Shown here piece after piece: positions 31,836 to 52,880 of a stretch of 64,000 nucleotides of DNA. The position numbers and the translations under genes were made by a program. Position 1 is the first letter of the stretch. Every line of letters starts with the position of its first letter. Under the pieces are notes generated by a model. The model searched no databases and had not been told where the DNA came from. It saw nothing but the letters and a program-made list of their open reading frames with translations. Source of the DNA: Tabrizicola sp. TH137 (GTDB lineage: Bacteria; Pseudomonadota; Alphaproteobacteria; Rhodobacterales; Rhodobacteraceae); NCBI RefSeq assembly GCF_002855575.1, contig NZ_PKRQ01000008.1:1-64000 (forward strand), given 5' to 3'.

Positions 31836-31854
31836 CGCACAGGAGTTGATGGCG

Positions 31855-36821: not shown

Positions 36822-37598
36822 CTAGCCCGGTTTTCGGGCCGCCAGATGCGTGGGGCAGTGTTCGCCGCTGTCCAGCACCGGGATCATCCGCGACCAGATG
36901 CCGATGTTCTGGTCCACGAAATCCTGCCCCACGATCCGCGCGGCGGCGGCCCCCACATCCCCCTTCAGGCGCGCGAGTTCCTCGCGCGCCTTTTCCCTGT
37001 ACCATGCGTTGCGCGAGGTGGCGCCGGTCTCGGTGAAACCGGCCTTCGCCATTGCGTCGAGATAGCGGGGGGCGGTGGCCATGCCGAAATCCAGCCCCTC
37101 GGCGGCGATGTAATCGGCCATGAGGGGGCTGATCTCTTCCGTCCCGATCAGCCAGTCGGAGGCAAGGAACCACCCGCCCGGTTTCAGGACGCGGAACACT
37201 TCGGCCATCAGGGTGTGCTTGTCGGGGATGTGGATGATGGAGTCCTTTGAGAAGACCACATCAAAGGTTCCCGGCGGAAAGGGCAGGGGGCCGGGGGCGA
37301 CCTTTACAAGGCCGATACGGGGGGTCAGTCCCGCCGCTTCGACCAGCCCGCGCGCATGGGTCAGGACCGGGTCTTCGACATCGAGACCGGTCACGTAACC
37401 CGCGCCATGCGTCTGGACGAGGGCGATGTCGATGCCGCCCGCGCCGCAGCCGATATCCAGCACGGATTTGCCGGTCAGGTCATGCGATCCGATGACGCGC
37501 GCCACCTCTTCCGGGCCACCGGGGGAGAGGAAGCCCTGTCCCCAGATCGCCTCGAGCATCGCGATCAGGCGGGGCGGGTAGTGGTCATGCTCGCTCAT
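36822..37598 (-). CDS. SAM-dependent class I methyltransferase
   Basis: A 258-residue Rossmann-type methyltransferase with motif I VLDIGCGAGGIDIAL (about residue 45), the acidic end of beta-2 in VTGLDVED, and FDVVFSKDSIIHIPDK plus VLKPGGWFLASDW, which resemble phosphoethanolamine and glycine/sarcosine N-methyltransferases. Substrate not readable. GGAG stands 7 nt before ATG 37598, and the gap to the amidohydrolase gene upstream is only 25 bp, so it is probably the last gene of the large catabolic operon. Its stop lies 2 bp from the stop of ilvD on the other strand. Confidence 0.85.
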   Translation of the reverse strand: MSEHDHYPPRLIAMLEAIWGQGFLSPGGPEEVARVIGSHDLTGKSVLDIGCGAGGIDIALVQTHGAGYVTGLDVEDPVLTHARGLVEAAGLTPRIGLVKVAPGPLPFPPGTFDVVFSKDSIIHIPDKHTLMAEVFRVLKPGGWFLASDWLIGTEEISPLMADYIAAEGLDFGMATAPRYLDAMAKAGFTETGATSRNAWYREKAREELARLKGDVGAAAARIVGQDFVDQNIGIWSRMIPVLDSGEHCPTHLAARKPG

Positions 37599-37623
37599 CT
37601 TTCGGCTCCGGTCAGGGGGTGGG

Positions 37624-39231
37624 TCAGAGGGTGGGGGCCTGCCAGACGGGGCGGCCCTTGAAGAGGGTGAGGAGGACGGTGGTGTCGGAAACCTCATCCG
37701 CCGGGCAGGTGAAGATGTCGCGGTCCAGCAGGATCAGATCGGCGGAGAAGCCGGGGCGCAGGATGCCGGTGAACCCGTCGCGCCAGCAGGCGCGGGCGGC
37801 ATGGGCGGTGTAGCCGAGGACGGCTTCTTCGATGGTGAGGGCCTGTTCGGGGAAGAACGGCGCTTCCGGTGCATCCCCCCGCCGCTTCTGCCGGGTGAGG
37901 GCGGTTTCGATGATCTCGAACGGGTTCAGCGTGCTGACCGGCCAGTCGGAGGAGAGGCACCAGTCGGCCCCGTGATCGAGGAGGGTGCGGAAGGCATAGG
38001 TGTCGCGCCAGCGGGACTTGCCGATCATGGCCAGCGAAGGGTCGGAAAACGGCGGTTCCAGCCGTGCCCAGAGCGGCTGGATATTGGCGGTGGCGAGGCC
38101 AGGAAGGCGGGCGGCATCGTCGGGGTCAACGAGTTGCAGGTGGGTGAGTTGATGCTGCGCGGGCCAGGGCCCGTTGGCGGCGCGGGCAGCGGCGAGGCCG
38201 TCCAGCGCGCGGCGGGTGGCGGCATCGCCGATGACATGGACATGGATCGCGAAACGGGCGGCATCCAGCGCGGTGAAGAGGGCATCCGTTTCCGCCGCGC
38301 CGAACATGCAGGGGGCGTTGCCGCCGGGGCCATCGGCATAGGGGGCGAGGCAGGCGGCGGTGCGGTTTTCGAACACCCCATCCATGAAGAACTTGGCGGA
38401 ATGGATGTGGTACTCCGGCCCCGGATGGGCGGCGCGCAGGGCGGTCAGGCGGGCGGTGGCGGTTTCGGGCGTGTCCGCCTCGGTCACCAGCGCCGCGCCG
38501 CAGATGCGGAGCGTCAGGTCACCTTCGGCCAGCGCGGCGGCGTAGATGCGGTTTTCCTTTTCGGTCACGCAGGGATCGAGGACGCCGGTGATGCCGTGGC
38601 GGTTGGCATGGGCCATGGCAGCGGTCAGGCCCTGGCGCAGATGGGCATCGGTGAGGTGGGGCAGGCGCTTGAGGGCCCAGGCGATGACCTCTTCATGCAG
38701 CATGCCCGTCGCGCGGCCCTGCGCATCGCGGACGATATGGCCATTGGGCGGATCAGGCGTGTCATCGGTGATGCCGGCCATGTTCAGCGCGCGGCTGTTG
38801 AGGCAGGCGTTGTGGAAGGAACTGTCATAGATCAGCGCGGGCCTGTCGGGCAGCACGCGGTCAAGCAGTGCGGCCGTCAGGTTGTGATCGCCGAAGATCC
38901 CCGGTTGCCAGCCGCTGCCCAGCACGAGGGGCAGGTCGGGATGGGTGTCCGCATGGGCCTTCAGCGTGGCGAGAAGGTTGTCCTCTGTCGTCGCGTCATA
39001 GAGCATGGCCGAGGTGGCGAGATCGGTGCCGCCGGAGAGGAGGTGGATATGGGGGTCCTGAAAGGCGGGCAGGATCAGGCGGCCTTTGGCATCCATCCTG
39101 TCGGGTGCCTCGGGCGGGGTGCCTTGGCCGAGGGCGATGATGCGGCCGTCGCGGATCAGGATCCAATCGGCGCTGGGGCGGGCGGCATCCATCGTGCGGA
39201 TGCGGGCGTTGTGGATCACGAGGTCAGGCAT
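37624..39231 (-). CDS. YtcJ-like metal-dependent amidohydrolase
   Basis: A 535-residue amidohydrolase-superfamily protein. The N-terminal metal motif is FQDPHIHLLSGG. Further metal or catalytic residues are in FHNACLNSR, HVHVIGDAATRRALD, QLTHLQL and LSSDWPVSTLNPF. The C-terminus (GFSADLILLDRDIF) is the family's beta-sandwich part. YtcJ-like enzymes hydrolyse amide or formamide-type bonds of varied substrates. It overlaps the cupin gene upstream by 8 bp, so it belongs to the same operon and may split an amide or N-formyl intermediate. Confidence 0.9.
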   Translation of the reverse strand: MPDLVIHNARIRTMDAARPSADWILIRDGRIIALGQGTPPEAPDRMDAKGRLILPAFQDPHIHLLSGGTDLATSAMLYDATTEDNLLATLKAHADTHPDLPLVLGSGWQPGIFGDHNLTAALLDRVLPDRPALIYDSSFHNACLNSRALNMAGITDDTPDPPNGHIVRDAQGRATGMLHEEVIAWALKRLPHLTDAHLRQGLTAAMAHANRHGITGVLDPCVTEKENRIYAAALAEGDLTLRICGAALVTEADTPETATARLTALRAAHPGPEYHIHSAKFFMDGVFENRTAACLAPYADGPGGNAPCMFGAAETDALFTALDAARFAIHVHVIGDAATRRALDGLAAARAANGPWPAQHQLTHLQLVDPDDAARLPGLATANIQPLWARLEPPFSDPSLAMIGKSRWRDTYAFRTLLDHGADWCLSSDWPVSTLNPFEIIETALTRQKRRGDAPEAPFFPEQALTIEEAVLGYTAHAARACWRDGFTGILRPGFSADLILLDRDIFTCPADEVSDTTVLLTLFKGRPVWQAPTL

Positions 39232-40075
39232 GGGCGGCGGACTCCAGTTCCGGCCAATCGTCGGCGGGGATGACTTCGGCGGTCTGGTTCACGTCCTGCG
39301 TCCAGACGAAGAAGGCGAGGAACGGGGTGGGGCCGGTCCGCGTCAGATGCGGGCGGTGGGGCGGGTTCCAGACCGGGTCATGGGCGGGTTTCGCCTGCAG
39401 GCTTTGCCCCGGGCCGAAGCGCCAGTCATGCGGGCCGGTGAGCGGGGCGTAGAGTTCGGGCGCGGCGTGGCGGTGATCGCGGTAGAGCGTCCTCGGGGCG
39501 ATGAGGAAGAGGCCGAGGTCGAAATCGGTGGCGGTGAAGGGGGCATCCTCGCCCCGGATCGAGGCGAAGGCATGGCCTGTGGCGAAGGCGTCGCCGATCA
39601 GGGCGCGGGGATAGGCGTCATAGGTGACCCAGTGCAGATGCGGCGCGGCGGCGCGGATGGCCTGTGCCAGCAGGGGATGGGTGGGCGCGAGGGCGTGGAG
39701 TGCCGGGTCAAGCCATGTGGTGGCGACCGGATTGGGCTGGGCTGTGACGGCGGTTTCGGGCCCCGGATCGGCGGGCAGGCCCGCGCGGACATCCGCCGCG
39801 CCGGGATGGTGCAGCGTGAGCAGGTAATCGCGCGCGGCGTGGTAGAGGGTGCGGAGGGGGCTGGCTGCCGCTGCCCCCGGCACGGGCGGCAGGCCACGTT
39901 CGGCAAGGATGGGTGCAGGGTCGCGGCCGTCATGGGCGGAGGCTTCGCGATAGACCTCCAACTGTGCCTCGGTGATCTGTCCCTCGCGATAGAGCGCCAT
40001 CGCCGCGCCATAGCGGACGCGCCCCGATCCGGGCACGCCCAAGGGCGCATGCAGCAGGGCGCGGGCGTCAGTCAT
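39224..40075 (-). CDS. DMSP-lyase-like cupin protein
   Basis: A 283-residue protein with a C-terminal cupin. The metal-binding stretch YRDHRHAAPELYAPLTG holds two His, Glu and Tyr in the spacing used by DddQ/DddL-type dimethylsulfoniopropionate lyases (HxxxE-LYxxLxG). A later His lies in NPPHRPHLT before FLAFFVWTQD. The N-terminal 120 residues are helical and Ala rich. A lyase acting on a betaine or sulfonium compound is plausible; DMSP itself is not proven. It overlaps genes on both sides (8 bp each), firmly within the operon. Confidence 0.65.
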   Translation of the reverse strand: MTDARALLHAPLGVPGSGRVRYGAAMALYREGQITEAQLEVYREASAHDGRDPAPILAERGLPPVPGAAAASPLRTLYHAARDYLLTLHHPGAADVRAGLPADPGPETAVTAQPNPVATTWLDPALHALAPTHPLLAQAIRAAAPHLHWVTYDAYPRALIGDAFATGHAFASIRGEDAPFTATDFDLGLFLIAPRTLYRDHRHAAPELYAPLTGPHDWRFGPGQSLQAKPAHDPVWNPPHRPHLTRTGPTPFLAFFVWTQDVNQTAEVIPADDWPELESAAHA

Positions 40076-40907
40076 TGCTGCGATAGGCCATCCGTTCATC
40101 GGCCAGACGCCGCGCCTCGGCCCGGTTCAGGATGATGCCTGCGAGGATGACGCCAAGACCCACAGTCACCACCATCAGCGTGGCCAGCGCGTTGATGTCG
40201 GGGGTGACGCCCAGCTTGACCTTGGACCAGATCAAGAGCGGAAGGGTCGTGGCCCCCGGCCCGGTGGTAAAGGTGGTGATGACGACATCGTCGAGCGAGA
40301 TGGTGAAGGCCAAGAGCCAGCCGGACAGGATCGCCGGGCTGATGACCGGAAGGGTGACGTCGAAGAGCACCTGCCAGGGGCGCGAGCCGAGGTCCATCGC
40401 CGCCTCTTCGATCGCGCGGTCGGCCTGCACCATGCGGGCCTGCACGATGGTGGTGACGAAGACCATCGAAAAGGTGATATGCGCCAGCGTGATGGTGGTG
40501 AAGCCGCGCTGGCCGGGCCAGCCGATCCATTCCGCCATCAGGATGAAGAAGATCAGGCTGGAAATGCCGGTGATGACCTCGGGCATGATGAGTGGCGCGG
40601 TGACGAGGCCGGAGAACATCACGCGGCCCTTGAACTTGCGGAACCGCGCCAGCGCGATGCCCGCCATGGTGCCGAGGATCGTGGCGAAGGTGGCCGAGAC
40701 GAGGGCGATCTTGAGGGACAGGATCAGCGCATCCATCACCTGCTTGTTCGACAAAAGCGAGACATACCATTTCGTCGAAAAGCCGCCCCAGACCGTGGCA
40801 AGGCGCGAGGCGTTGAAGCTGTAGACGATCATCGACAGGATCGGGATGTAGAGAAAGGCAAAGCCGAAGCAGAGGACGGTGATCAGGAAGACGGGGCTGC
40901 GCTTCAT
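40068..40907 (-). CDS. Polyamine-type ABC transporter permease (PotC/PotI-like)
   Basis: A 279-residue inner-membrane permease with six hydrophobic segments. The coupling motif EEAAMDLGSRPWQVLFDVTLP (about residues 167-187) is the EAA loop that docks on the ATPase. N-terminus and order match the second permease of spermidine/putrescine importers. Its start overlaps the first permease by 4 bp. It belongs to the importer encoded at 40068-44044. Confidence 0.93.
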   Translation of the reverse strand: MKRSPVFLITVLCFGFAFLYIPILSMIVYSFNASRLATVWGGFSTKWYVSLLSNKQVMDALILSLKIALVSATFATILGTMAGIALARFRKFKGRVMFSGLVTAPLIMPEVITGISSLIFFILMAEWIGWPGQRGFTTITLAHITFSMVFVTTIVQARMVQADRAIEEAAMDLGSRPWQVLFDVTLPVISPAILSGWLLAFTISLDDVVITTFTTGPGATTLPLLIWSKVKLGVTPDINALATLMVVTVGLGVILAGIILNRAEARRLADERMAYRSND

Positions 40908-41818
40908 TTCGACCCCTCCGCCCTGCCCTGGAAATGGGTGTAGATCATTGTCGGGATCACCATGAGCACCAAGAGCGCGACCGCGACGGCCGAAGCCATG
41001 GGCCAATCCCGCGCGGTGGCGAATTCGTCCGAGATGACGCGCCCGATCATCGGATCGGCGGCGTTGCCGACAAGGGTGGGGATCACCAGTTCGCCCGCCG
41101 CCGGGATGAAGACCAGCATCCCGCCAGCCACGATGCCGGGAACGGATTGCGGCAGGGTCACATCGCGGAAGACCTGCGAGGGTCTGGACCCAAGGTCCAT
41201 CGCCGCCTCGTCCAGCGTGGGGTCCAGCCTTTCGAGGCTGGCGTAAAGCGGCAGGATCATGAAGGGCAGGTAGGTATAGACCATCACGAGGATGACCGCG
41301 AAATTCGTGTTCATCATCGGGATGGAGCGCACCGCCCAATCGACCGGGACGAGGAAGTTCCACGCGTCGGTGAGCATTCCGTTGAACCAGCTGTTGCGGC
41401 CCATCAGCCCCATCCAAGCATAGACGCGCAGAAGGAAGGAGGTCCAGAAGGGCAGGATCACCAGCATCAGCAGGATGTTGCGCCAGCCCCGCGACACGCG
41501 CGTCAGCGCCAGCGCCATGGGATAGCCCAGAAGCAGGCAAAGGATCATCGCCACGGCGGCATTGGCGAGCGAGGTGAGGAAGGCCCGCAGGTAGAGGTCA
41601 TCGGTGAAGATGCGCTGATAGGCCTGAAGGTTGATCAGCGGGTGTTCCCCCCCGAAGGAGAAGGGGGGGGCTGTCGCCGTCTTGGTGGCCACGCTCATCG
41701 CCACGACGATGAGGAAGGGCAGCAGGAAGAAGATCACCAGCCAGACATAGGGCGCGCCGATGATGATGTCCGACCAGCCCCGGCGATCCATGTATTTCGT
41801 GCGGGGGCTGTCGGTCAT
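40904..41818 (-). CDS. Polyamine-type ABC transporter permease (PotB/PotH-like)
   Basis: A 304-residue permease. After MTDSPRTKYMDRRGW there are six hydrophobic segments. The EAA loop reads DEAAMDLGSRPSQVFRDVTLP. ATG 41818 was chosen, because earlier starts (to 41908) would run into the ATPase stop region and lack conservation. It lies 4 bp after the ATPase gene. Confidence 0.93.
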   Translation of the reverse strand: MTDSPRTKYMDRRGWSDIIIGAPYVWLVIFFLLPFLIVVAMSVATKTATAPPFSFGGEHPLINLQAYQRIFTDDLYLRAFLTSLANAAVAMILCLLLGYPMALALTRVSRGWRNILLMLVILPFWTSFLLRVYAWMGLMGRNSWFNGMLTDAWNFLVPVDWAVRSIPMMNTNFAVILVMVYTYLPFMILPLYASLERLDPTLDEAAMDLGSRPSQVFRDVTLPQSVPGIVAGGMLVFIPAAGELVIPTLVGNAADPMIGRVISDEFATARDWPMASAVAVALLVLMVIPTMIYTHFQGRAEGSK

Positions 41819-41822
41819 GCCG

Positions 41823-42938
41823 CTACTCCGCCAGAACGATGGCCGCGGCGGGATCGAAGGAGAGCCAGACGGCATCGTCCCAGTCCGCCACCCTTGCGCC
41901 TTCATCACCGCGGCGGGCGTTCACCGCATGGGCCTGAACGAGGGCACCGGAGGGAAGGGTGATGCGATAGAGGCTGTCCTTGCCGAAGTAGGCGAGATCC
42001 TTGACCGATCCGCGCAGGGCGTTCGGGCCTTCGGGCGTGTCGCGGCTGATGCGGATCTTTTCGGGGCGGATGGCCAGCGTGACGGATTGCCCCGGCGTGA
42101 CGTGGGGCACGTCGCGCGCCGTCACCTCGGCCCCCAAGGCGGGCAGGGTCAGGCGCAACTGGCCTGCGTCGCGGGCCGCCACCCTGGCCTCGAAGGTATT
42201 GATCGACCCGATGAAGCCCGCAACGAAGCGGCTGTTGGGGAATTCGTAGATCTCTGTCGGGCTGCCGATCTGGCGCACCTCGCCCTTGTCCATCACGGCG
42301 ATGCGGTCGGAGAGGGTCATCGCCTCTTCCTGGTCATGGGTCACGACGATGAAGGTGACGCCCGTACGTTGCTGGATCGACATGAGTTCGAATTGCGTGT
42401 GTTCGCGCAGTTTCTTGTCCAGCGCGGCGAGGGGTTCATCGAGGAGCAGAAGCTTCGGCTGCCGTGCCAGCGCGCGGGCCAGCGCCACGCGCTGCCTTTG
42501 GCCGCCGGAAATCTGATGCGGCTTGCGGGTAGCGAAGGGGGTGAGTTGCACCAGTTCCAGCATCTCGCGCACGCGGTCGGCGCGATCCTTGGCCGACATG
42601 TCTTCGTGCTTGAGCCCGTAGGCGACGTTCTTCTCCACCGTCATGTGGGGAAAGAGGGCATAGCTTTGGAACATCATGTGGACGGGGCGCGACCAGGGGG
42701 GAACCCCCGCCATGTCGCGCCCGTCAAGGAAGATGCGGCCTGCCGTGGGTTCTTCGAACCCGGCCAGCATCCGCAGGAGGGTGGTCTTGCCACAGCCGGA
42801 GCCGCCGAGAAGCGAGAAAATCTCGCCCTTCTGGACGGTGAGGGAGACGTTCTTCACCGCCTGAAAGGTACCGAAGACCTTGGATACTCCTTCGATCCGA
42901 AGGAAGGGTTCGCCCGCGCCGGGCGCGTCGGCGGGCAT
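41823..42938 (-). CDS. Polyamine-type ABC transporter ATPase (PotA/PotG-like)
   Basis: A 371-residue ATPase: Walker A GGSGCGKTT, Q-loop MMFQSYALFPHMTV, signature ISGGQRQRVALARAL, Walker B LLLLDEPLAALD and H-loop THDQEEAM. The C-terminal TOBE domain (about 290-370, RPEKIRI) is typical of PotA/PotG. It is 2 bp from the binding-protein gene. Confidence 0.94.
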   Translation of the reverse strand: MPADAPGAGEPFLRIEGVSKVFGTFQAVKNVSLTVQKGEIFSLLGGSGCGKTTLLRMLAGFEEPTAGRIFLDGRDMAGVPPWSRPVHMMFQSYALFPHMTVEKNVAYGLKHEDMSAKDRADRVREMLELVQLTPFATRKPHQISGGQRQRVALARALARQPKLLLLDEPLAALDKKLREHTQFELMSIQQRTGVTFIVVTHDQEEAMTLSDRIAVMDKGEVRQIGSPTEIYEFPNSRFVAGFIGSINTFEARVAARDAGQLRLTLPALGAEVTARDVPHVTPGQSVTLAIRPEKIRISRDTPEGPNALRGSVKDLAYFGKDSLYRITLPSGALVQAHAVNARRGDEGARVADWDDAVWLSFDPAAAIVLAE

Positions 42939-42940
42939 GA

Positions 42941-44044
42941 TCAGCCACCCGTCTTGATTTCGGTCCAGGCGCGGTTCAGATCCGTTTCCTGCTGTTCGGT
43001 CTGCGGCAGGGGCGTGTACATGCGCGCCAGCGCCTCGCTATCGGGATAGACGGCGGGATCGGCGGCGATGGCCGGATCGACGAAGGGCAGCGCCGCCTTG
43101 TTCGCGCTGCCATAGCCGGTGAAGTTGGTGCAAGCGGCGATCACTTCGGGGCGCAGCAGGTAATCCATGAAGAGATGCGCGTTTTCGACATTGGCCGAAT
43201 CCGACGGCACCGCCCAGACATCGAACCATGCGGGCGCGCCGGTCTTGGGGATGAAATAGCCCAGATTGAGTTCGATCCCCACTTCGGCCCCGCGGGCCTT
43301 GGCCACGCCATAATCGCCCGACCATGTGTTGATGGCGCAAAGCTCGCCATTCGGGATGCCACTGAGATAGTTCGAATTGTCGAAGGTCGCGATGTAGTCG
43401 CGGACCGGTCGCACCGCCTCGACCAGTTTGGCCCATTCTTCGGGGCCGGCGGTGTTGGGGTCGATCCCCAGATGGCTGAGGATCATGAAGCCGATATCGT
43501 TCGGGCTGTCGAGCAGCGAGATACCGCAATCGGCCAGCGCCGCCGCGTTTTCGGGGTTCAGGATCGTGTCGAGCGAATGGAGATCGGCATTGGGAAGGCG
43601 TTCCTTCACCATGTCGAGGTTATAGGTCATGCCGACCGACCCCCACATGTAGGGAACGCAGTATTCGTAGCCCGGATCGTAGGTTTCGCCGATGCGGAGG
43701 ATTTCCGGGTCGAGATTGCCCCAGCCGGTGAGTTTCGACTTGTCGATCTTTTGCAGGACACCCGCCTGGATGGACCGGGGCAGGCCCTGCCCGGAATGCA
43801 GCACCACGTCATAGCCGGTGGAGCCGGCCAGAAGCTTTGCCTGCATTTCCTCGGCGCTGGAATAGAGGTCATAGACCACTTCGATGCCGGTTTCGGCGGT
43901 GAAATCGGCCAGAGTGGTTTCGCCGATATAGTCGGACCAGTTGTAGACATTCACGACCCCGGCCTGCGCCCAGGAGGGGCGAACAAAGGGGGCCGAGAGC
44001 GTTGCACCCATCCCGAGAAGGGTGCTGCGGCGGGTGAGTTTCAT
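42941..44044 (-). CDS. PotD/PotF-type periplasmic substrate-binding protein
   Basis: A 367-residue binding protein. MKLTRRSTLLGMGATLSAP is a Tat-like signal with R-R at 5-6, cleaved near SWAQA. The mature start VVNVYNWSDYIGETTLADF is the PotD/PotF hallmark. The family binds polyamines and, in its many paralogues, other cationic amines, so in this operon a methylated or quaternary amine is a fair guess. ATG 44044 follows GGGAGAATGCC; ATG 44074 is possible but would bury the Tat motif. Confidence 0.93.
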   Translation of the reverse strand: MKLTRRSTLLGMGATLSAPFVRPSWAQAGVVNVYNWSDYIGETTLADFTAETGIEVVYDLYSSAEEMQAKLLAGSTGYDVVLHSGQGLPRSIQAGVLQKIDKSKLTGWGNLDPEILRIGETYDPGYEYCVPYMWGSVGMTYNLDMVKERLPNADLHSLDTILNPENAAALADCGISLLDSPNDIGFMILSHLGIDPNTAGPEEWAKLVEAVRPVRDYIATFDNSNYLSGIPNGELCAINTWSGDYGVAKARGAEVGIELNLGYFIPKTGAPAWFDVWAVPSDSANVENAHLFMDYLLRPEVIAACTNFTGYGSANKAALPFVDPAIAADPAVYPDSEALARMYTPLPQTEQQETDLNRAWTEIKTGG

Positions 44045-44085
44045 GGCATTCTCCCTGTTGTTCATTTGTATCATTGGGGTTCAGC

Positions 44086-45303: not shown

Positions 45304-46436
45304 GGGCGATCCTCCATTTCGGACAGAATCCAGCGGTGGAAATTGTGAATCTCGTATTCCTCGGGCATCAGCCGCGCAGCGGTGAAGGCGGGGGAACGGA
45401 TGCCGCGCTGGTTCATCTCGGCCGCCGTGCCGTCCTGTTCCAGCACGGTGATGGCGAAGGCCGCGACGGCGGCGGGGTCGAGGGCTGGCAGCGTCTCGGG
45501 CGCGAAGTGCCATTCGGCGGTGAGGCGGGTGCGTTCCGGGCCGAGCGGTTCGATGCGGACGGAACGGACGTAATCGGCATGGGCCACGACATAGGCCGTG
45601 GGCCAGAGCGTGACGAAGGTATAGCCCGCCGCGCGTTCCTGGTCTGTCAGGTCGGGGAAGGGGGGGGCGCAGAGGGCGCCGTCAGGCGTCCAGCTTGCCG
45701 CGCCTGGGCGGAGATTGGGCTGGGCGGGCTGGCCGGGCTGCCAGTCATGCGCCTCGGTCGCGCCCATGATGCCGCGCCCGTAAACGGGGACCATGTCGCA
45801 GAGTTCGGGATGGATGCCGGGGCAGTGCAGGCATTCGGAGTAATTTTCCCAGAAGGTCTTCCAGTTGCAGGCAAGCTCTGCCTGCCAGCGATGGCCGGTG
45901 ACGAGGTCTGCCATCGGCCAGTTGTCCAGCGTGGAGAGCGGGACATCGGCATGAAGGGGCGGGGGATCCTTGGCCAGCGACAGGAAGAGGAAGCCGTTCC
46001 AGACCTTGTGCGCGACGGGGCGCAGGCCGTGGGCGGCGCGGTCGAAATCCTGTGTCGGGCGGGCATGGCCGGTGGCGACGAGGCGGCCATCCTCGGCCGC
46101 ATAGGCGAAGGCGTGATAGGGGCAGCGGATGAGGCGGCCGATCTCTTCCACCTCGGTGCGGCAGAGTTCGGAGCCGCGATGGGGGCAGGAATTGTGATAG
46201 GCGGAGAGGGCGCCTACCGTTGTTCGCGCCACGATCACCGGGGCGGTTCCTACGGTGACGCGCCGCATCGTGCCGGGGGTGAAGTCGGCCAGCCGCCCGA
46301 CCATGATCCAGTGCCGGGCGAAGATCGTGGCCATCTCGCGCGCCTGCCAATCGGCGTCCAGATAGGCCGAGCGGGGCAGGCCTTCGGGGCAGTGCCCAAG
46401 GCGGGGGGAAAGCGGGTGGCGGTCTTCCTGTCCCAT
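45300..46436 (-). CDS. Rieske-type oxygenase alpha subunit (second, glycine-betaine-monooxygenase-like)
   Basis: A 378-residue oxygenase with Rieske ligands C84-x-H86 and C105-x2-H108 (NSCPHRGSE, RCPYHAF). The iron-site segment WENYSECLHCPGIHPEL has the NxxECxHCPxxHPEL form found in demethylating Rieske enzymes of quaternary amines such as GbcA and stachydrine demethylase. Oxidative removal of an N-methyl group as formaldehyde is therefore the likely reaction. Its stop shares one base with the next gene's start (TGATG). Confidence 0.93.
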   Translation of the reverse strand: MGQEDRHPLSPRLGHCPEGLPRSAYLDADWQAREMATIFARHWIMVGRLADFTPGTMRRVTVGTAPVIVARTTVGALSAYHNSCPHRGSELCRTEVEEIGRLIRCPYHAFAYAAEDGRLVATGHARPTQDFDRAAHGLRPVAHKVWNGFLFLSLAKDPPPLHADVPLSTLDNWPMADLVTGHRWQAELACNWKTFWENYSECLHCPGIHPELCDMVPVYGRGIMGATEAHDWQPGQPAQPNLRPGAASWTPDGALCAPPFPDLTDQERAAGYTFVTLWPTAYVVAHADYVRSVRIEPLGPERTRLTAEWHFAPETLPALDPAAVAAFAITVLEQDGTAAEMNQRGIRSPAFTAARLMPEEYEIHNFHRWILSEMEDRP

Positions 46437-47620
46437 CAGAACCTCGCCGCTGGGGTCAGCGTGCGGCGGGCGGGGGTGTAGAAGGGACGGTCCACCACCC
46501 GGGCGCGCATCATCATCTTGGCATAATGCAGCTCGCGGAGCGCATAGATTTCCGCCCAGAGATCGGGGCTTTTCACCAGATCGGCGCGAAGTTGCGCCAG
46601 CGCGATGTTGCGTTTCAGGGTGGGCGACCAGCAGGCCCCCGTCACCACGCCGGCCTCGTGCTTTTGCGCGCGGTAGAGGATTGCGCCATCGGCGGGGATG
46701 TTGCCGTCAATCTCCAGCCCCACGAAGGCCCATTCGGGGCCCTTCGCGCGCTGCTTCAGCAGGGCGTTGCGCCCGGTGAAATGGCCCTTCTCCCAGTCGA
46801 TCAGCCAGCCGAGGCCCATGTCGAGCGGGGTGCGGAGGCGGTCTTCGCGCAGGCAGACATGGGCGGGGGTGAAGTCGTAGCCGGTGATGATGAAGCCCGC
46901 CTCCAGCCGCGCGATATTGAGCGCGTCGGAACCGATGGGGCGCAGGCCGTGGAGATGGCCCGCCTCCATCAGCCGATCCCAGAGCGGGAGGGCGAGGTCA
47001 GGCGTCGTCCAGAGTTCGTAGCCCAGATCGCCGGTGAAACCGGTGCGCGAGATCATCAGGCGACCGGTGGCGAAGGGCACGTCCATCATGCGGAAGGGTT
47101 TCAGGGCGTCGATGTCGATGCCCGCGCGGCGCAGGATTTCGGCGGAGGTCGGGCCTTGCAGGGAGAGGGCGGCGATATCTTCCGTCTCTTCCGTTACGGT
47201 GACGTCGAAGCCGTGGGCGCTGTCGAGAAGCCAGGGCAGGTGACGTTCCTGGCAGCAGAGGCGGAAGCGCGTGTCGGTCAGGCGGAAGAGGGTGCCGTCA
47301 TCCAGAAGGTGCCCGGCATCATCGCACCAGATGGTGTAATGCACCGATCCGGTGCGGAGTTTGGCCACGTTGCGCGGGGTGAGACGGTCGAGGAAGGCCA
47401 CCGCATCGGGCCCTTCGATCCGGTATTTGATCATCGGGCAGAGGTCATAGACCGAAGCGCTGTTGCGGATGGCGGAATGTTCCATCGCAAGGTCTTCGAA
47501 CGTCGTGACGGTGCGATAGCCGCCCCAGTTTGCCCAGGCGTGGGTCTTGCAGGCGGCCGCGGTGCGCGCGTCGAAGGGCGTGGGCAGCAGGGGCGTTTCG
47601 TAGTGGCGCAGGTCGTTCAT
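46436..47620 (-). CDS. GcvT-like aminomethyltransferase / THF-dependent demethylase
   Basis: A 394-residue protein of the glycine-cleavage T family. Motifs: DDAGHLLDDGTLFRL (catalytic Asp region), SLQGPTSAEILRRAG, SRTGFTGDLGYELW and PLDMGLGWLIDWEKGHFTGRNALL. These are the folate-binding fold and C-terminal barrel. The family moves one-carbon units from amines or sulfonium compounds to tetrahydrofolate (GcvT, DmdA, dimethylglycine demethylases). Beside two Rieske enzymes it probably captures a methyl or formaldehyde unit. The start 47620 overlaps the FAD gene upstream by 4 bp. Confidence 0.9.
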   Translation of the reverse strand: MNDLRHYETPLLPTPFDARTAAACKTHAWANWGGYRTVTTFEDLAMEHSAIRNSASVYDLCPMIKYRIEGPDAVAFLDRLTPRNVAKLRTGSVHYTIWCDDAGHLLDDGTLFRLTDTRFRLCCQERHLPWLLDSAHGFDVTVTEETEDIAALSLQGPTSAEILRRAGIDIDALKPFRMMDVPFATGRLMISRTGFTGDLGYELWTTPDLALPLWDRLMEAGHLHGLRPIGSDALNIARLEAGFIITGYDFTPAHVCLREDRLRTPLDMGLGWLIDWEKGHFTGRNALLKQRAKGPEWAFVGLEIDGNIPADGAILYRAQKHEAGVVTGACWSPTLKRNIALAQLRADLVKSPDLWAEIYALRELHYAKMMMRARVVDRPFYTPARRTLTPAARF

Positions 47621-49128
47621 CTCTCGGCCTCCATCGCAAGGGCCGCGTTCCAGCCGGGGGTGCCCGAGACGCCGCCGCCGGGATGGCATCCCGCAGAGGC
47701 GAGCCAGAGGCCGGTGATCGGTGTGCGATACTGGGCGATGCCGGGGAGGGGGCGGAGGAAGAGCATCTGTTCCACGCTGAGTTCGCCCGCATGCCAGTTG
47801 CCGCCGGGAAGGCCGGTTTCGGCTTCGATGTCATAGGGCATGCGGAGGCGGGTCTCGGTCACGCTCGCGGTCAGGCCGGGGGCGTGGCGTTCCAGTTGCA
47901 GCAGGCAGGCGGCCAGCATTGCGGCGCGTGCGGCATCGCGGTCGGCTGGTGCATGGGGGGCGTATTGCACGATGGCCGACAGGCGGTGCTGGCCGTCTGG
48001 CGCGGGGGTGCGGGCGGTGGGGATCAGGAGTTCCATCACCGGTTCCTCCGGCACCTCGCCGTATTTCACCGGGTTGAAGGCGCGTTCGACATGCTGGTCC
48101 GACGGGGCGATCAGCAGGCGATGTGTCGGATCGGCCCCGCGGAAATCGGGCAGGGACGATAGGGTGAGGTCCAGCCGCGCCGCGCCACCGCGCGCCTTCT
48201 GGTGGCGGGCACGGGTGTAGAGGCCGTTGTCGAGATGGCGGGGGCCGATCAGGGCAGTGAGCGTTGTCTTGGGTGCCAGGGCCGAGACGATGCGTTTCGC
48301 GGTGATCTCTTCGCCCGACGTCAGGGTGACGCCGGTGGCGGTGCCGTCGGTCACCTCGATCCGGGCGACGCGGGCATTGCAGCGGATCGTGACGCCCGCC
48401 GCGACGGCCGCCTTGGCCATGGCGGTGGCAAGGGCGGGCATGCCGCCTTCGGGCAGGCCGAGGGCGCCTTGCTGGCCTTGGGTTGCGCCGGACAGGCGGT
48501 AGAGCCAGGGAAGGACGGAATTGGGAGAGCGCGGTCCGAGCCAGGAGCCGAGCGTGGCGTCGAAGGCGAGCGCGCCTTTCAGGAGGGGCGAGCGGAGTTC
48601 GTCATCCAGCAGGTCGAAGACATTGGTCAGGAAGATGCGGCCCAGTTCGCGGAACTCTGCCGCGCCCATCATCCGCGCCTTCAGCCCGATCATGGCAAGT
48701 TTCAGGAGCGGGTTCTTCGCATCGGCGGCGGGGCGGGGCGGCGTCATCGTATTGAGCGGCGCGAGGATCGCGGCGAAGCGCAAAAGGCGGGCGCGGAGGT
48801 CCGCCCATGCCTTGGCATCGGCGGGGTCGATGTTGCCCGAAAGGCGGGCGCCCAGAACCCCGTCCATCCGCAGATGGTTGCCATCGGCGGCCAGCGCCGT
48901 GGTGGGCAGCGCTGTGGTTGCCCATGTCAGGCCGTGGCGGGCGAGGTCCATCCCCTGCTCTACCCGCGGGTCGAGATTGTAGGACAGATGGGCCAGTGCC
49001 GCCGCGCCGCCCCCCGGTGCGGCCCCGGCCTCCAGCACCAGGACGGAGGCCCCGCCCTTGGCCAGCCGGTGCGCAGCGGCAAGGCCGTTGGGGCCTGCGC
49101 CGATGACGATGGTGTCAAACGATGGCAT
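47617..49128 (-). CDS. FAD-dependent oxidoreductase of the phytoene-desaturase/amine-oxidase type (downstream copy)
   Basis: A 503-residue flavoprotein with an N-terminal dinucleotide fold DTIVIGAGPNGLAAAHRLAKGG and E at the end of beta-2 (VLVLEAGAAPGG). A C-terminal FAD stretch GLWLASAGCHPGGGVSGTPG closes the fold. It is related to carotenoid desaturase-like oxidoreductases, but no carotenoid genes are present, so an amine or amino acid oxidation is more likely here. It is a diverged paralogue of the gene before it and overlaps that gene by 14 bp. Confidence 0.88.
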   Translation of the reverse strand: MPSFDTIVIGAGPNGLAAAHRLAKGGASVLVLEAGAAPGGGAAALAHLSYNLDPRVEQGMDLARHGLTWATTALPTTALAADGNHLRMDGVLGARLSGNIDPADAKAWADLRARLLRFAAILAPLNTMTPPRPAADAKNPLLKLAMIGLKARMMGAAEFRELGRIFLTNVFDLLDDELRSPLLKGALAFDATLGSWLGPRSPNSVLPWLYRLSGATQGQQGALGLPEGGMPALATAMAKAAVAAGVTIRCNARVARIEVTDGTATGVTLTSGEEITAKRIVSALAPKTTLTALIGPRHLDNGLYTRARHQKARGGAARLDLTLSSLPDFRGADPTHRLLIAPSDQHVERAFNPVKYGEVPEEPVMELLIPTARTPAPDGQHRLSAIVQYAPHAPADRDAARAAMLAACLLQLERHAPGLTASVTETRLRMPYDIEAETGLPGGNWHAGELSVEQMLFLRPLPGIAQYRTPITGLWLASAGCHPGGGVSGTPGWNAALAMEAER

Positions 49129-50728
49129 AGGCGTCGCTCATGTGGGAAACGGGTTGGCGCAGGTCGCGCAGCACTTCGCGGGCGGCGTTGCGGCCCGGCG
49201 CGCCCATGACGCCACCGCCCGGATGGGTGGAGGAGCCGCATATCCAGAGGTCCTTCACCGGCGAGCGGTAGTTGGCGTAGCCCGGAACGGGGCGGTTGAA
49301 GAACATCTGGTCGAAGGTCAGTTCGCCCTGGAAGATGTTGCCTTCGGTCAGGCCCACTTCTGCCTCCAGCTCGCGCGGGGTGCGCACCTCGACATGCAGG
49401 ATCAGGTCGCGGAAGCCGGGGGCATGGGCCTCGATCTGGTCGATGCAGGTCTTGGCAAAGGCGTCGCGGTCGGCATCGCTCCAGGCCTTTCCTTCGATCT
49501 GGGGCGGGGCGTATTGCACGAAGCAGGACATGAAATGCTTGCCCGGGGGGGTCATCGTCGGGTCGATCATCGTGGGGATCATCACGTCCTGGAACGGGTG
49601 GCGGCTGAAGCGGCCCGCCTTCCAGTCGTCATAGGCGCGTTCCATCTGGTCGATCGTGTCGGTGAAATGCAGATCGCCCTTGATGTTGGGCGCCCCCTCG
49701 GGGAGCGCGGTGAAGCGCGGCAGGCCGTCGAGCGCGATGTTGAGCTTGCCGGAGGAACCGCGGGTCTTGAACCGTTCCACCCGTTTCACGAAATCGGGCG
49801 GCAGTTCCTTGCGGTCAACATGGCCAAGGAAGGTGCGGCGAACATCCATGTTGGACAGGACGCGGCGGGCGGCGATTTCATCGCCATTGGCCAGCACGAC
49901 ACCAGTGGCGCGGCCATTGGAAATGCGCACCTCCTGCACGCCTATCCCTGCGCGGATTTCCCCCCCCGCAGCGCGGAAGCTTTCGGCCAGGGCGCGGGTG
50001 ATCGACCCCATGCCACCCCGTGCGTAGCCCCATGCGCCCACATTCCCATCCACGTCGCCCATGGCGTGATGGAGAAGGACATAGGCGGTGCCGGGCGACA
50101 TCGGGCCGAGTGCGGTGCCGATGATCGAGCCCACGGCCTGATAGGCCTTTACTGCGGGGTTTTCGAAGTATTCGTCGAGGAAGTCGCTGATCGACATGGT
50201 CCAGAAGCGCAGCATGTCGCAGAGAGCGGCTTCGGACTGCCCGGTGATCTGGCGGCCGAGCCAGAGCAGTTCGGATAGGTCGCGGGGATGGAAACTGGCG
50301 AGGTCCGGCGGGCGGCGCATCAGCATGGGCCGGATCAGGCGGCAGTTGCGCAGGATATCGCGGGCGTAGCGGTCATAGGCTTCGGCATCGCGGCGGGAAT
50401 GGCGGGCGATTTCGCGGCGGTTCGATTCATGGTCGCGGAACATGCCCAGATAGCCGCCGTCGCGCGTCATCAGCGCGCCGCCCTCATAGGGCAGGATTTG
50501 CAAGCCGTGGCGCGACAGGTCCAGATCGCGCATGATCTCGGGCCGGAAGAGGCTGCTGACATAGGAGCAGTTGGAATAGGTGAACCCAGGATAGAGTTCG
50601 CGGCTGACTGCGGCGCCACCGATCCAGTCGTTCTTTTCGACGATGACGGTCTTCAGCCCGGCGCGCGCCAGATAGCAGGCCGCGACAAGGCCATTATGTC
50701 CTGCCCCGATAACGACGGCATCATACAT
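49115..50728 (-). CDS. FAD-dependent oxidoreductase of the phytoene-desaturase/amine-oxidase type (upstream copy)
   Basis: A 537-residue flavoprotein: DAVVIGAGHNGLVAACYLARAG, then VIVEKNDWIGGAAVS, and a C-terminal DLWICGSSTHPGGGVMG motif like that of the downstream copy. Conserved central features include DISDFLDEYFENPAVKAY and GGMGSITRALAESF. The tandem pair may form a heterodimer or catalyse successive oxidations. Overlaps of 8 bp upstream and 14 bp downstream tie it to the operon. Confidence 0.88.
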   Translation of the reverse strand: MYDAVVIGAGHNGLVAACYLARAGLKTVIVEKNDWIGGAAVSRELYPGFTYSNCSYVSSLFRPEIMRDLDLSRHGLQILPYEGGALMTRDGGYLGMFRDHESNRREIARHSRRDAEAYDRYARDILRNCRLIRPMLMRRPPDLASFHPRDLSELLWLGRQITGQSEAALCDMLRFWTMSISDFLDEYFENPAVKAYQAVGSIIGTALGPMSPGTAYVLLHHAMGDVDGNVGAWGYARGGMGSITRALAESFRAAGGEIRAGIGVQEVRISNGRATGVVLANGDEIAARRVLSNMDVRRTFLGHVDRKELPPDFVKRVERFKTRGSSGKLNIALDGLPRFTALPEGAPNIKGDLHFTDTIDQMERAYDDWKAGRFSRHPFQDVMIPTMIDPTMTPPGKHFMSCFVQYAPPQIEGKAWSDADRDAFAKTCIDQIEAHAPGFRDLILHVEVRTPRELEAEVGLTEGNIFQGELTFDQMFFNRPVPGYANYRSPVKDLWICGSSTHPGGGVMGAPGRNAAREVLRDLRQPVSHMSDAYAIV

Positions 50729-52085
50729 GGGCGGGTTCCCTGGCCGCCTCAGACTCCAGATCCTCCAGCGTCAGGTCCACGGCGGTTTCGACGGCGCGCA
50801 GCGTGTCGGTCAGGCAGGTCGGATCAAGACCATGGGCCTCGCACATGAACCAGGGTTCGCGGCTGTCGGGTTCGCAGATGATGCCCAGATCGTGCAGGTA
50901 ATACGCCATGCGGTCGTAGAAGCTGTAATCCGACGTCTTCCAGGCGCGATAGTTGTCGGGCGGTTCGGGCGCGAAGAAGAGGCCGAACATCGAGGGATGG
51001 CCGGAAAAGGAATGGACGATCCCGCGCGCGTTCAGGATGGCCGAGATGCCCGCCTTCAGGCGTTCGCCATAGTTGGCCAGGGTTTCCAGTGCCGGGGTTT
51101 CGTCCAGGATGCGCAGACATTCCTCGGCGGCGGCAAGGCTGACGGAATGGGCGGTATAGGTGCCGCCATGGCTTGCCCCGCCATAGCGGAAGGAGCGCAT
51201 CACCTCTTCCCGCCCGGCGACGACGGCGATTGGATAGCCGTTCGCCACGGCCTTGGCGAAGGTGGTGATGTCGGGGGTGACGCCAAGGATGCCCTGGATG
51301 CCGCCCTTGCCGACGCGGAAGCCCGATTTCACCTCGTCGATGATGAGCATGACGCCGTAGCGGGTGCAGAGTTCGCGGGCGAGGCGGACATATTCGGCGC
51401 TGGCCATGATCGAGCAGCAATTGCCCTGGATCGGTTCGATCAGCATGGCGGCGAACTGGTTGCCATGGCGGCGGAACACATCTTCCAGCCGTTGCAGATC
51501 GTTCATCGGTGTCAGGTGGGCGAGGCTGCGGACGGTGGGTGGGATGCCCTTGCCATAGGGCACAACTTCGGGGTCGGCATTGCCGCCCTGCTGCCAGCCC
51601 TCGACATCGGCCTGCCACATCGCGGCATCGAACAGGCCGTGATAGCCGCCTTCCACGAGCAGATAGGATTCCCGTCCCGTATGGGCGCGGGCAAGGCGCA
51701 GCGCGGCCATGACCGCCTCGGTCCCCGAATTGGAGAAGCGGACGAGTTCGGCGGCGGGGACCATCTTGGCGATGCGGTCGGCGACGATGAGTTCGCGTTC
51801 GGTCGAGAGGGCGAAGACGCCGCCAACCTCCATCCCCTTGCGGGCGGCGGCATCGACGCGGTCATCGGCATAGCCGAGGATCGCGGGGCCATAGCCGAGG
51901 CGGTAATCGACATAGCAATTGTCGTCGATATCCCATGTCCGCCCGCCCTTGCCGCGCGCAACATAGATCGTGCGATCCTCGCCCCAGTAGCGGAAGGTGG
52001 AGGAAACGCCCAAGGGCAGCCGCTTCACGGCGCGTTGGAACTGGGCGTTCGATTTCGTGAGGGTGCGATGGGGCGGGAGGGTCAT
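50721..52085 (-). CDS. Class III PLP aminotransferase (glutamate-1-semialdehyde aminomutase-like)
   Basis: A 454-residue fold-type I PLP enzyme. Visible motifs: FSNSGTEAVMAALRLARAHTG (phosphate-binding), EGGYHG, LIIDEVKSGFRVGKGG (PLP-pyridine Asp) and TTFAKAVANGYP with the Schiff-base Lys. It aligns with HemL-like transaminases rather than GABA or ornithine types; since no heme genes are near, it is a catabolic enzyme. ATG 52085 gives MTLPPHRTL; ATG 52142 is possible but would reach into the operator. It is the first gene of the thirteen-gene operon. Confidence 0.92.
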   Translation of the reverse strand: MTLPPHRTLTKSNAQFQRAVKRLPLGVSSTFRYWGEDRTIYVARGKGGRTWDIDDNCYVDYRLGYGPAILGYADDRVDAAARKGMEVGGVFALSTERELIVADRIAKMVPAAELVRFSNSGTEAVMAALRLARAHTGRESYLLVEGGYHGLFDAAMWQADVEGWQQGGNADPEVVPYGKGIPPTVRSLAHLTPMNDLQRLEDVFRRHGNQFAAMLIEPIQGNCCSIMASAEYVRLARELCTRYGVMLIIDEVKSGFRVGKGGIQGILGVTPDITTFAKAVANGYPIAVVAGREEVMRSFRYGGASHGGTYTAHSVSLAAAEECLRILDETPALETLANYGERLKAGISAILNARGIVHSFSGHPSMFGLFFAPEPPDNYRAWKTSDYSFYDRMAYYLHDLGIICEPDSREPWFMCEAHGLDPTCLTDTLRAVETAVDLTLEDLESEAAREPAHV

Positions 52086-52124: not shown

Positions 52125-52144
52125 GATTGACTGGGTTGTCAATC
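52125..52144. promoter_or_regulatory. TetR/BetI-type operator between the catabolic operon and its regulator
   Basis: GATTGAC-TGGGTT-GTCAATC is a perfect 7-bp inverted repeat with a 6-bp spacer, 40 bp before the aminotransferase start and 92 bp before the TetR start. The half-site resembles the ATTGA-rich elements bound by BetI. TTGACT inside it could double as a -35 element. It would let one repressor control both directions. Confidence 0.75.
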
Positions 52145-52235
52145 AATTCTTTTCCCGTGCAGGTTTTCGCGCTAGTCTGCCTTTGTCTGGCGCGGCTTTG
52201 CCGCTACATGGGCATCAGTTTCCGAAAGGTGAGCC

Positions 52236-52880
52236 GTGACACGACCTGCGCTTCAGACCGACCCGCGCCCGCCCCGCACCCTGAGCAAGGATGCGCGCCG
52301 GGCGCAGCTGATCGAAGCGACGATCAGCACGATGGCGGAATTCGGCTATTCCCGCACCACGCTGACGGCGGTGGCGAAGCGGGCGGGCCTGTCGCATGGG
52401 CTGGTGCTGTTCCATTTCGACACGAAGGAGAACCTTCTGTCCGAGACGCTGGATTTCCTGTCGGAGGAATATCGGGCGAACTGGCAGGCGGCGCTGGCCG
52501 CGGCGGGGGATCGCCCCGAGGCGCAGCTTGAGGCGCTGGTGCGGGCGGATTTCAACCCGGTGATCTGCACGCGCGACCGGTTGGCGGCCTGGTGCGCCTT
52601 CTGGGGGGAAAGCCAGAGCCGGCCGATCTATCAGGCGCGCTGCGGATCGAATGACGAGCATTACAATCGCGTGCTGGAGGGCATCTGTGCCGAGATGAAC
52701 CTTCGGCATGGCTATTCGCACGATCCAGCACGGGTGTCGCGGCTGATCCGCATTTCCATCGAAGGGGTCTGGCTGGACCTGATGACGATGGCGGCGCCCT
52801 ATGCGACGGAAGAGGCGATGGCGACGGTCTGGCTGGGGCTGTCGGCCTTGTATCCCCGGCAGTTTCAGCCCCTGACCTGA
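52236..52880 (+). CDS. BetI-like TetR-family regulator
   Basis: A 214-residue repressor. The TetR DNA-binding domain (about 20-70) reads RRAQLIEATISTMAEFGYSRTTLTAVAKRAGLSHGLVLFHFDTKENLL, given here as a single region ending in the usual FxxKE. The ligand domain has the BetI-like line RLAAWCAFWGESQSRP, which in BetI senses choline-like compounds. The GTG start at 52236 follows AAAGGTGAG. It diverges from the catabolic operon and likely represses it until the methylated substrate is present. Its end overlaps the end of the opposing LysR gene by 16 bp. Confidence 0.93.
   Translation: MTRPALQTDPRPPRTLSKDARRAQLIEATISTMAEFGYSRTTLTAVAKRAGLSHGLVLFHFDTKENLLSETLDFLSEEYRANWQAALAAAGDRPEAQLEALVRADFNPVICTRDRLAAWCAFWGESQSRPIYQARCGSNDEHYNRVLEGICAEMNLRHGYSHDPARVSRLIRISIEGVWLDLMTMAAPYATEEAMATVWLGLSALYPRQFQPLT

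What the first reader, a model, noticed from the sequence alone, without database searches (positions are those of the whole stretch)
36822..52085. Thirteen-gene operon for uptake and demethylation of an unidentified methylated amine or sulfonium compound
Transporter (polyamine-type), two unlike Rieske oxygenases, a GcvT-like folate enzyme, two tandem FAD oxidoreductases, a HemL-like aminotransferase, a DMSP-lyase-like cupin, an amidohydrolase and a methyltransferase are all on one strand with overlaps or gaps up to 41 bp. The mix points to stepwise N-demethylation (Rieske, GcvT), dehydrogenation (FAD), transamination and hydrolysis. It does not match any standard betaine, carnitine, stachydrine or choline operon that I know. 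This is the best candidate here for an undescribed pathway.
Basis: inference. Interest (0 to 1): 0.85.

Follow-up and report, generated by a model that had tools for sequence, protein, structure and literature searches.

The report
Operon stripping methyl groups from amines
A conserved thirteen-gene bacterial operon looks built to import a nitrogen-methylated amine, strip off its methyl groups and break down the rest, with an enzyme combination I could not match to a described pathway; its exact substrate is still unknown.

Summary
Of 35 related loci spanning the block, 30 keep the order aminotransferase-FAD-FAD-GcvT-Rieske-Rieske-transporter. A BetI-like TetR gene faces it, and a palindrome in the gap has one site in the whole genome, so it looks like one dedicated regulon. 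Presence is patchy: 3 of 19 genomes of its genus.

The core is wider than the operon: a tandem CrtO-type FAD pair has GcvT beside it in 22 of 23 loci, a single FAD gene in 1 of 24. Rhizobiales keep TetR, both FADs, GcvT and one Rieske but swap aminotransferase and binding protein.

Best reading: uptake of an N-methylated, probably quaternary amine, Rieske and FAD/GcvT N-demethylation, then transamination. RIE1 carries quaternary-amine residues; the binding protein keeps a polyamine-type acidic pocket. A methylated lysine or diamine is the leading guess, unproven; the Rhizobiales binding protein, lacking those acids, argues against it. A sulfonium substrate rests only on the DMSP-lyase-like cupin. 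No reaction is shown. New variant of a known kind.

The parts
52236..52880 (+). TetR regulator with BetI-type C-terminal domain, divergent
   Evidence: TetR_N and TetR_C_6; BetI models 98 and 93.9 bits, below cut-offs 201.3 and 118
52128..52145 (-). probable TetR operator TGATTGACANNNCAGTCA
   Evidence: only site in the own genome at up to 1 mismatch; one exact site in each of 14 searched genomes
50721..52085 (-). class III aminotransferase (AT), HemL/GntE-like
   Evidence: PF00202; GntE model 414.7 bits, cut-off 525 not met
49115..50728 (-). FADA, CrtO-type FAD oxidoreductase
   Evidence: fold nearest carotenoid desaturase, then nicotine and amine oxidases (model pLDDT 75)
47617..49128 (-). 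FADB, second CrtO-type FAD oxidoreductase
   Evidence: 34% identical to FADA
46436..47620 (-). GcvT-family folate protein
   Evidence: PF01571 and PF08669; DDGTLF and SRTGFTGDLGYEL kept in at least 95% of 70 sequences
45300..46436 (-). RIE1, Rieske oxygenase with Tyr/Glu/Cys/Cys signature
   Evidence: 29 of 30 copies, one unread
44086..45303 (-). RIE2, Rieske oxygenase with Asp/Glu/Gly/Val at the same places
   Evidence: 48 of 54 copies, six unread
42941..44044 (-). PotF-type solute-binding protein
41823..42938 (-). ABC transporter ATPase
40904..41818 (-). ABC permease 1
40068..40907 (-). ABC permease 2
39224..40075 (-). small helical domain fused to a DddQ-like cupin
   Evidence: PF16867 75.2 bits, cut-off 27; N-terminal domain matches a stand-alone protein of Rhizobiales; fold
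37624..39231 (-). Amidohydro_3 family hydrolase
   Evidence: a relative at the cupin end in 17 of 29 genomes searched, the window's near-twin among them
36822..37598 (-). methyltransferase related to phosphoethanolamine N-methyltransferases

Best explanation
A TetR-controlled catabolic operon imports an N-methylated, probably quaternary, aliphatic amine through a polyamine-type ABC transporter. Rieske oxygenases attack the quaternary end; the two CrtO-type flavoproteins oxidise remaining N-methyl groups and the stand-alone GcvT traps the one-carbon unit on tetrahydrofolate, as the FAD and folate domains of dimethylglycine dehydrogenase do (recalled mechanism). The freed primary amine goes to the class III aminotransferase, and the aldehyde is oxidised further, partly by genes elsewhere. 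Shown here: gene content, conservation, operator, FAD-pair/GcvT linkage, conserved residues. Inferred: every reaction and the order. Substrate guess: methylated lysine or methylated short diamine (together about 0.4), carnitine/gamma-butyrobetaine-type amine (0.2), choline/ethanolamine type (0.1), other (0.3).
For: Order kept in 30 of 35 spanning loci. One operator site in the own genome. Tandem FAD pair next to GcvT in 22 of 23 loci, single FAD in 1 of 24. RIE1 keeps the bridging Glu, the Tyr seen in carnitine/choline enzymes and the Cys pair in 29 of 30 copies (PMC7948474 and PMC10952381, passages). The binding protein keeps four acidic positions of the putrescine pocket (roles recalled). 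Two different class III aminotransferase subfamilies occupy the operon in different lineages, so transamination seems required. Carnitine-type genes lie within the flank in 4 of 80 loci and beside a FAD+gcvT pair in Shinella.
Against: No reaction shown. The Rhizobiales binding protein has lost Asp257 and Asp168, so a shared dicationic substrate is doubtful. No Rieske reductase lies in the operon: the three PF00175 matches of the genome are on other contigs. A conserved methyltransferase fits poorly in a demethylation route. RIE2 matches neither described subgroup at the Tyr/Asn position. The FAD family's named relatives act on carotenoids. One tandem locus, L184, has no GcvT.
Confidence: 0.66

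Rival explanations
1. The substrate is a methylated lysine: demethylation gives lysine, the aminotransferase removes the epsilon amine, and the neighbouring lysine/pipecolate operon finishes the route.
For: The neighbouring operon has an AmaB-type dehydrogenase over cut-off (804.9 bits, cut-off 730), an AmaA-like oxidase (418 bits, cut-off 600 not met) and a 2-oxoacid dehydrogenase E1; E1, the 346-aa gene and AmaB also flank the operon in L047 and L074, and E1 in L025. Lysine is a dication, as the binding pocket suggests.
Against: The lysine genes were found next to the operon in the window, its close relative L025 and two Defluviimonas only, and the copy on the F. ytuae plasmid has other neighbours. 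The conserved acidic pocket shows no sign of a carboxylate site, though none was sought.
Confidence: 0.2
2. The substrate is an N-methylated short diamine or polyamine, turned after demethylation and transamination into an amino or trimethylammonio acid.
For: PotF-type binding protein with D39, D (at E185), D247, D278 kept in 35 of 35, 37 of 37, 36 of 37 and 37 of 37 readable sequences; PuuC/betaine-aldehyde-like dehydrogenase between GcvT and the aminotransferase in L168 (557.5 bits, PuuC cut-off 850 not met).
Against: Rhizobiales binding protein lacks two acids. No natural abundant methylated diamine is known to me for these habitats; a search found no paper on their bacterial breakdown.
Confidence: 0.2
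3. It belongs to carnitine/gamma-butyrobetaine breakdown or feeds it.
For: Carnitine 3-dehydrogenase over cut-off in L066 (753.6 bits, cut-off 592) with CoA-ester genes, and similar sets in L078, L081 and L092; gamma-butyrobetaine/TmpA-like dioxygenase in L166 and a relative in L088, below both cut-offs.
Against: Seen in 4 of 80 loci; many loci are too short to show it. None was seen beside the window's operon.
Confidence: 0.2
4. It handles DMSP or a like sulfonium compound.
For: Cupin over the PF16867 cut-off, nearest fold DddQ (E 1.2e-13), His/His/Glu/Tyr/His motif kept.
Against: Sequence similarity to the solved DMSP lyase is weak (36 bits). In Rhizobiales only the small domain is present. 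Rieske, GcvT pair and aminotransferase are not needed for DMSP cleavage (established knowledge, recalled).
Confidence: 0.05
5. FADA and FADB are not demethylases but desaturate or oxidise the carbon skeleton; GcvT serves only the formaldehyde from the Rieske enzymes.
For: Closest named families and nearest fold are carotenoid enzymes.
Against: Tandem pairs stand with GcvT without any Rieske gene, as in L174, L175 and L178; nicotine and amine oxidases rank next by fold, at 13-18% identity and from a moderate model.
Confidence: 0.25

Closest known systems
Group V Rieske oxygenases: glycine betaine (GbcA), stachydrine (Stc2), carnitine (CntA)
   Same: Nearest solved relatives of RIE1 (3n0q, Stc2) and RIE2 (CntA); GbcA model is the top NCBIfam hit for both; bridging Glu kept
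   Different: GbcA cut-off 670 not met (128.6 and 153.6 bits); no reductase gene in the operon; RIE2 has Asp where the described subgroups have Tyr/Phe or Asn
Dimethylglycine/sarcosine dehydrogenases and TMAO demethylase
   Same: A folate-binding GcvT domain acting with an oxidative part; the GcvT part of TMAO demethylase is the top NCBIfam hit of GCVT (253 bits, cut-off 1100 not met)
   Different: Here GcvT is a separate protein and the linked flavoproteins are CrtO-type, not the DAO-type of dimethylglycine dehydrogenase (recalled)
PotFGHI polyamine transporter
   Same: Binding protein, permeases and ATPase of that type; acidic pocket kept
   Different: PotF and PotI cut-offs not met (317 of 636, 323 of 476 bits); E185 replaced by Asp throughout
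Guanitoxin transaminase GntE / HemL group
   Same: Nearest named models for the aminotransferase (414.7 and 334 bits)
   Different: Both cut-offs missed (525 and 398); no other operon protein scanned matched a guanitoxin model
DMSP lyases DddQ/DddL
   Same: PF16867, nearest fold
   Different: Fused to a small domain that stands alone in Rhizobiales

Membership tests
Group V (quaternary-amine) Rieske oxygenases, RIE1 | bridging Glu, Tyr/Phe (Va) or Asn (Vb) two before it, Cys-X-X-Cys in some members | tested here: met
   Tyr, Glu, Cys, Cys in 29 of 30 copies, one unread (features from passages); no tree was made
Group V (quaternary-amine) Rieske oxygenases, RIE2 | same positions | tested here: inconclusive
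   Glu kept, but Asp in place of Tyr/Phe/Asn and no Cys pair in 48 of 54 copies, six unread
Glycine betaine monooxygenase GbcA | NCBIfam cut-off 670 bits | tested here: not met
   128.6 and 153.6 bits
Dimethylglycine/sarcosine dehydrogenase type | folate-binding GcvT part | tested here: met
   PF01571 and PF08669 over cut-off, motifs kept
Dimethylglycine/sarcosine dehydrogenase type | DAO-type flavin part fused to GcvT | tested here: not met
   GcvT is separate and the neighbouring flavoproteins are CrtO-type, although PF01266 (DAO) also matches their FAD region
Dimethylglycine/sarcosine dehydrogenase type | N-demethylation with folate | not testable with these tools
   needs an enzyme assay
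PotF putrescine-binding proteins | acidic residues D39, E185, D247, D278 (recalled) | tested here: met
   kept with E185 as Asp; NCBIfam PotF cut-off missed
DMSP lyase family PF16867 | Pfam gathering score 27 | tested here: met
   75.2 bits; activity not testable here
Guanitoxin transaminase GntE | NCBIfam cut-off 525 bits | tested here: not met
   414.7 bits
BetI choline repressor | NCBIfam cut-offs 201.3 and 118 bits | tested here: not met
   98 and 93.9 bits
Phosphoethanolamine N-methyltransferases | amine-binding Asp and catalytic His (recalled) | tested here: met
   SKD...H kept in at least 95% of 25 sequences; nearest solved chain 5wp5, 1e-32; no NCBIfam hit at 1e-30

The most novel reading that the evidence does not exclude
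The tandem CrtO-type flavoproteins and the stand-alone GcvT form a new kind of split N-demethylase: two flavoproteins take N-methyl groups and hand the one-carbon unit to a shared folate protein. The trio exists on its own in some Alphaproteobacteria and has been built into several amine-catabolic operons, of which this is one.
Probability: 0.42. Interest if true: 0.72.

Novelty: new variant of a known kind. Interest (0 to 1): 0.56.

Why it matters
Methylated amines are important nitrogen and carbon sources in water and soil, and genes for many of them are unknown. If the reading is right, this gives a marker set for an unassigned methyl-amine pathway found in lake, reactor, soil and root-nodule bacteria (record titles), and adds a flavoprotein family not known to me for demethylation to one-carbon metabolism. 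The three-gene FAD-FAD-GcvT unit makes the idea testable with three purified proteins.

Tried and rejected
Known pathways. Homarine: a search gave 100 papers with either term; none of the 20 listed holds 'homABCDER', so that operon was not compared. Searches for a matching gene set, for methylated polyamines (69) and for methyl-lysine (76) showed no title or abstract start describing this set. Only listings were seen, except passages of PMC10952381 and PMC7948474. The library lacks most subscription papers, so this does not show that it is unpublished.

Guanitoxin-related metabolism, suggested by the GntE model, was set low: score below cut-off. A DMSP pathway was set low because Rhizobiales carry only the small domain. 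A roughly 985-aa neighbour of FAD-FAD-GcvT (7 loci) is glnE in the one copy scanned. The operator was sought in 26 Rhizobiales loci and not found (best 9-12 of 18 positions). A fold search of FADA gave no function.

Weak points. The 47 loci (L161-L207) were picked by me from the hits: best orthologues first, some because they were visibly tandem, then 38-47% relatives. They include close relatives (several from one genus), two loci of one genome (L161, L162) and L166, the organism of L078; so Fisher p 4e-11 overstates independence. L167, the one single with GcvT, and L181, counted as single without, both show a weak second FAD gene and GcvT; L188 has a GcvT gene next to its single FAD but beyond the 400-base limit. 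The first count (22 of 46) missed genes because my gene caller is crude; counts from ORF families and tblastn differ for that reason. The residue sets contain some sequences twice, from overlapping stretches of one genome. In one search a reference labelled SpuE is chain 3ttm_A.
Full report
What is there. Thirteen minus-strand genes run from 52085 to 36822 with overlaps or gaps of at most 41 bp (starts set by the annotated copy): class III aminotransferase (AT), two CrtO-type FAD oxidoreductases (FADA, FADB), GcvT, two Rieske oxygenases (RIE1, RIE2), a PotF-type binding protein, ATPase, two permeases, a PF16867 cupin, an amidohydrolase and a methyltransferase. Of these, eleven proteins were scanned against NCBIfam and none reaches a cut-off among the models listed (at most 25 each). 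Facing the operon is a TetR gene with a BetI-type C-terminal domain, then a LysR gene.

Conservation. A scan with FADA kept the best 80 of 537 relatives. Among 35 of the loci L025-L078 (mostly labelled Rhodobacterales or Rhodobacteraceae) that are long enough to span the block, 30 keep AT-FADA-FADB-GCVT-RIE1-RIE2-SBP-ATP-PER1-PER2 in order, and 27 of these have the cupin next. The five others: L034 lacks AT, L056 lacks AT and RIE1, L063 lacks RIE2 and the transporter, L072 has FADB in pieces, L078 lacks AT. In 29 genomes searched for the amidohydrolase, 17 have it at the cupin end (with the methyltransferase between in two), 7 have a relative beside another polyamine-type binding protein or transporter, and 5 have only distant relatives or none. 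The operon is patchy: 3 of 19 genomes of the window's genus have FADA. A 96.5% identical FADA in the same gene set lies on a 169-kb plasmid of Fuscovulum ytuae, with IlvD and the DUF6671 gene behind it as in the window.

Rhizobiales variant. In 30 loci (L079-L104, L106, L138, L160, and L107, a marine Rhodobacterales plasmid that shares the variant) my ORF families found GcvT in 27, a different PotD-like binding protein in 26, a different class III aminotransferase in 20, a small 80-88 aa protein in 15, RIE2 in 14 and a flavin amine oxidase in 9. The aminotransferase passes the PRK07036 cut-off in both copies scanned. These are lower bounds, because loci are cut and the gene caller is crude. 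By tblastn a methyltransferase homologue lies in 17 of the 26 loci L079-L104.

Regulation. The TetR-AT gap holds a palindrome; an 8-mer of it occurs in 40 of 43 gaps (42 loci and the window). TGATTGACANNNCAGTCA with at most one mismatch has one site in the 4.66-Mb genome, at 52128-52145, and 17 sites in 14 searched genomes, one exact site in each, against one site for the reversed control. By my arithmetic from the contig ranges and, the exact sites lie just upstream of the operon. G010 and G089 give the same coordinates and are probably one genome, so 13 are distinct. In the window alone a match with up to 3 mismatches is expected 0.58 times, so the weight lies on exactness and conservation. 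The Rhizobiales loci lack it.

The FAD-FAD-GcvT unit. In 385 genomes of the class, 78 have a FADA relative at E 1e-60 or better. Around 47 such genes, picked as told under Tried and rejected, 22 of 23 loci with a tandem FAD pair have GcvT adjacent, and 1 of 24 with a single FAD. In L174, L175 and L178, among others, the trio stands without the operon's transporter, Rieske or aminotransferase families, beside a gene that is glnE where scanned. In L161, L168, L169 and L172 it comes with TetR and an aminotransferase of one or the other subfamily. This linkage is the main new finding. It suggests that the flavoproteins oxidise N-methyl groups and GcvT takes the one-carbon unit, as in dimethylglycine dehydrogenase (recalled).

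Residue tests. RIE1 shows Tyr, Glu, Cys, Cys at the places of CntA Y203, E205, C206 and C209 in 29 of 30 copies, one unread. PMC7948474 ties the Tyr to carnitine and choline enzymes and gives Asn for the betaine demethylases; PMC10952381 describes the Cys pair (passages). So RIE1 resembles the first subgroup at this place although a betaine demethylase, Stc2, is among its nearest solved relatives. RIE2 has Asp, Glu, Gly, Val in 48 of 54, six unread, fitting neither. The binding protein keeps the four acidic positions of the putrescine pocket (numbering and roles recalled), with E185 as Asp, and Trp244 in 35 to 37 of 37 sequences, the rest being gaps apart from one Glu. The Rhizobiales binding protein keeps the aromatic residues but has Cys for Asp257 in 32 of 32 and Asn for Asp168 in 31 of 32. 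Either the lineages take different substrates, or an aromatic cage holds the ligand.

Cupin. It is a fusion: its first 75 or so residues match the small protein that follows GcvT in Rhizobiales (a profile of the small proteins hits 34 of 35 cupins, the window copy with 47.7 bits; eleven invariant columns over 20 sequences). Pfam shows only sub-threshold TPR matches for that domain. The model is good (pLDDT 90.7), and the cupin part is nearest to DMSP lyase DddQ (best E 1.2e-13; cupins outside the Ddd lyases from 2e-7), with the motif H.H.APELY and PH.T kept (ligand roles recalled). It may be a lyase or isomerase of an intermediate.

Neighbours as clues. In 4 of 80 loci (L066, L078, L081, L092), from two orders, carnitine-type genes lie within the flank: carnitine 3-dehydrogenase over cut-off in L066, and hydratase, acyl-CoA dehydrogenase, ligase and cleavage-enzyme relatives below their cut-offs or not scanned. 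A gamma-butyrobetaine/TmpA-like dioxygenase (below both cut-offs) lies in L166, the organism of L078, with a 75% relative in L088. In L168 an aldehyde dehydrogenase sits between GcvT and the aminotransferase. In the window the other neighbour is a lysine/pipecolate operon with AmaB over cut-off, partly shared by L047 and L074. These fit trimethylammonium C4-C6 compounds, but each occurs in few loci.

The methyltransferase. Its nearest solved relatives are phospho(methyl)ethanolamine N-methyltransferases (5wp5, 1e-32). A methylating enzyme in a demethylating operon is the strangest part. One untested idea is that it completes a quaternary group so that a Rieske enzyme can act.

Missing part. 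Rieske oxygenases need a reductase; none is in the operon, and the three PF00175 matches of the genome lie on other contigs.

Verdict. An ordered, probably regulated, widespread but patchy catabolic operon for an N-methylated amine, of new composition. The chemistry is inferred from families, residues and linkage; the substrate is open. New variant of a known kind, with a possibly new demethylase type inside it.

Noticed in passing
window 53852-59865 (+): Neighbouring operon: fused 2-oxoacid dehydrogenase E1, a 346-aa protein without Pfam match, L-piperidine-6-carboxylate dehydrogenase (AmaB, over cut-off) and an L-pipecolate-oxidase-like protein; a GcvA-like LysR gene is divergent to it.
   Followed up: partly
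window 30273-34233 (+): A DabA inorganic carbon transporter subunit next to a proton-antiporter-family membrane protein, a probable dab-type system, followed by a DUF6671 gene and IlvD.
   Followed up: no
L105 (NZ_CP124537.1): The operon is plasmid-borne in Fuscovulum ytuae, and related sets lie on large plasmids of Rhizobium, Shinella and Parasedimentitalea.
   Followed up: partly
L072 (CP059262.1): A record titled Exiguobacterium profundum MAG carries the Rhodobacterales-type operon with FADB in pieces; the title is probably wrong.
   Followed up: no
G000, whole genome: 17 matches to the GcvT family in one genome, 14 of them with E below 1e-50: much folate-linked one-carbon chemistry.
   Followed up: no
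L144, L145, L146, L147, L148: A relative of the amidohydrolase sits beside a binding protein of the Rhizobiales type, a possible second uptake system for a related compound.
   Followed up: partly
L107, L138, L168, L172: Large NADH:flavin oxidoreductases of the OYE type lie in or beside the variant clusters, perhaps an alternative demethylase.
   Followed up: partly
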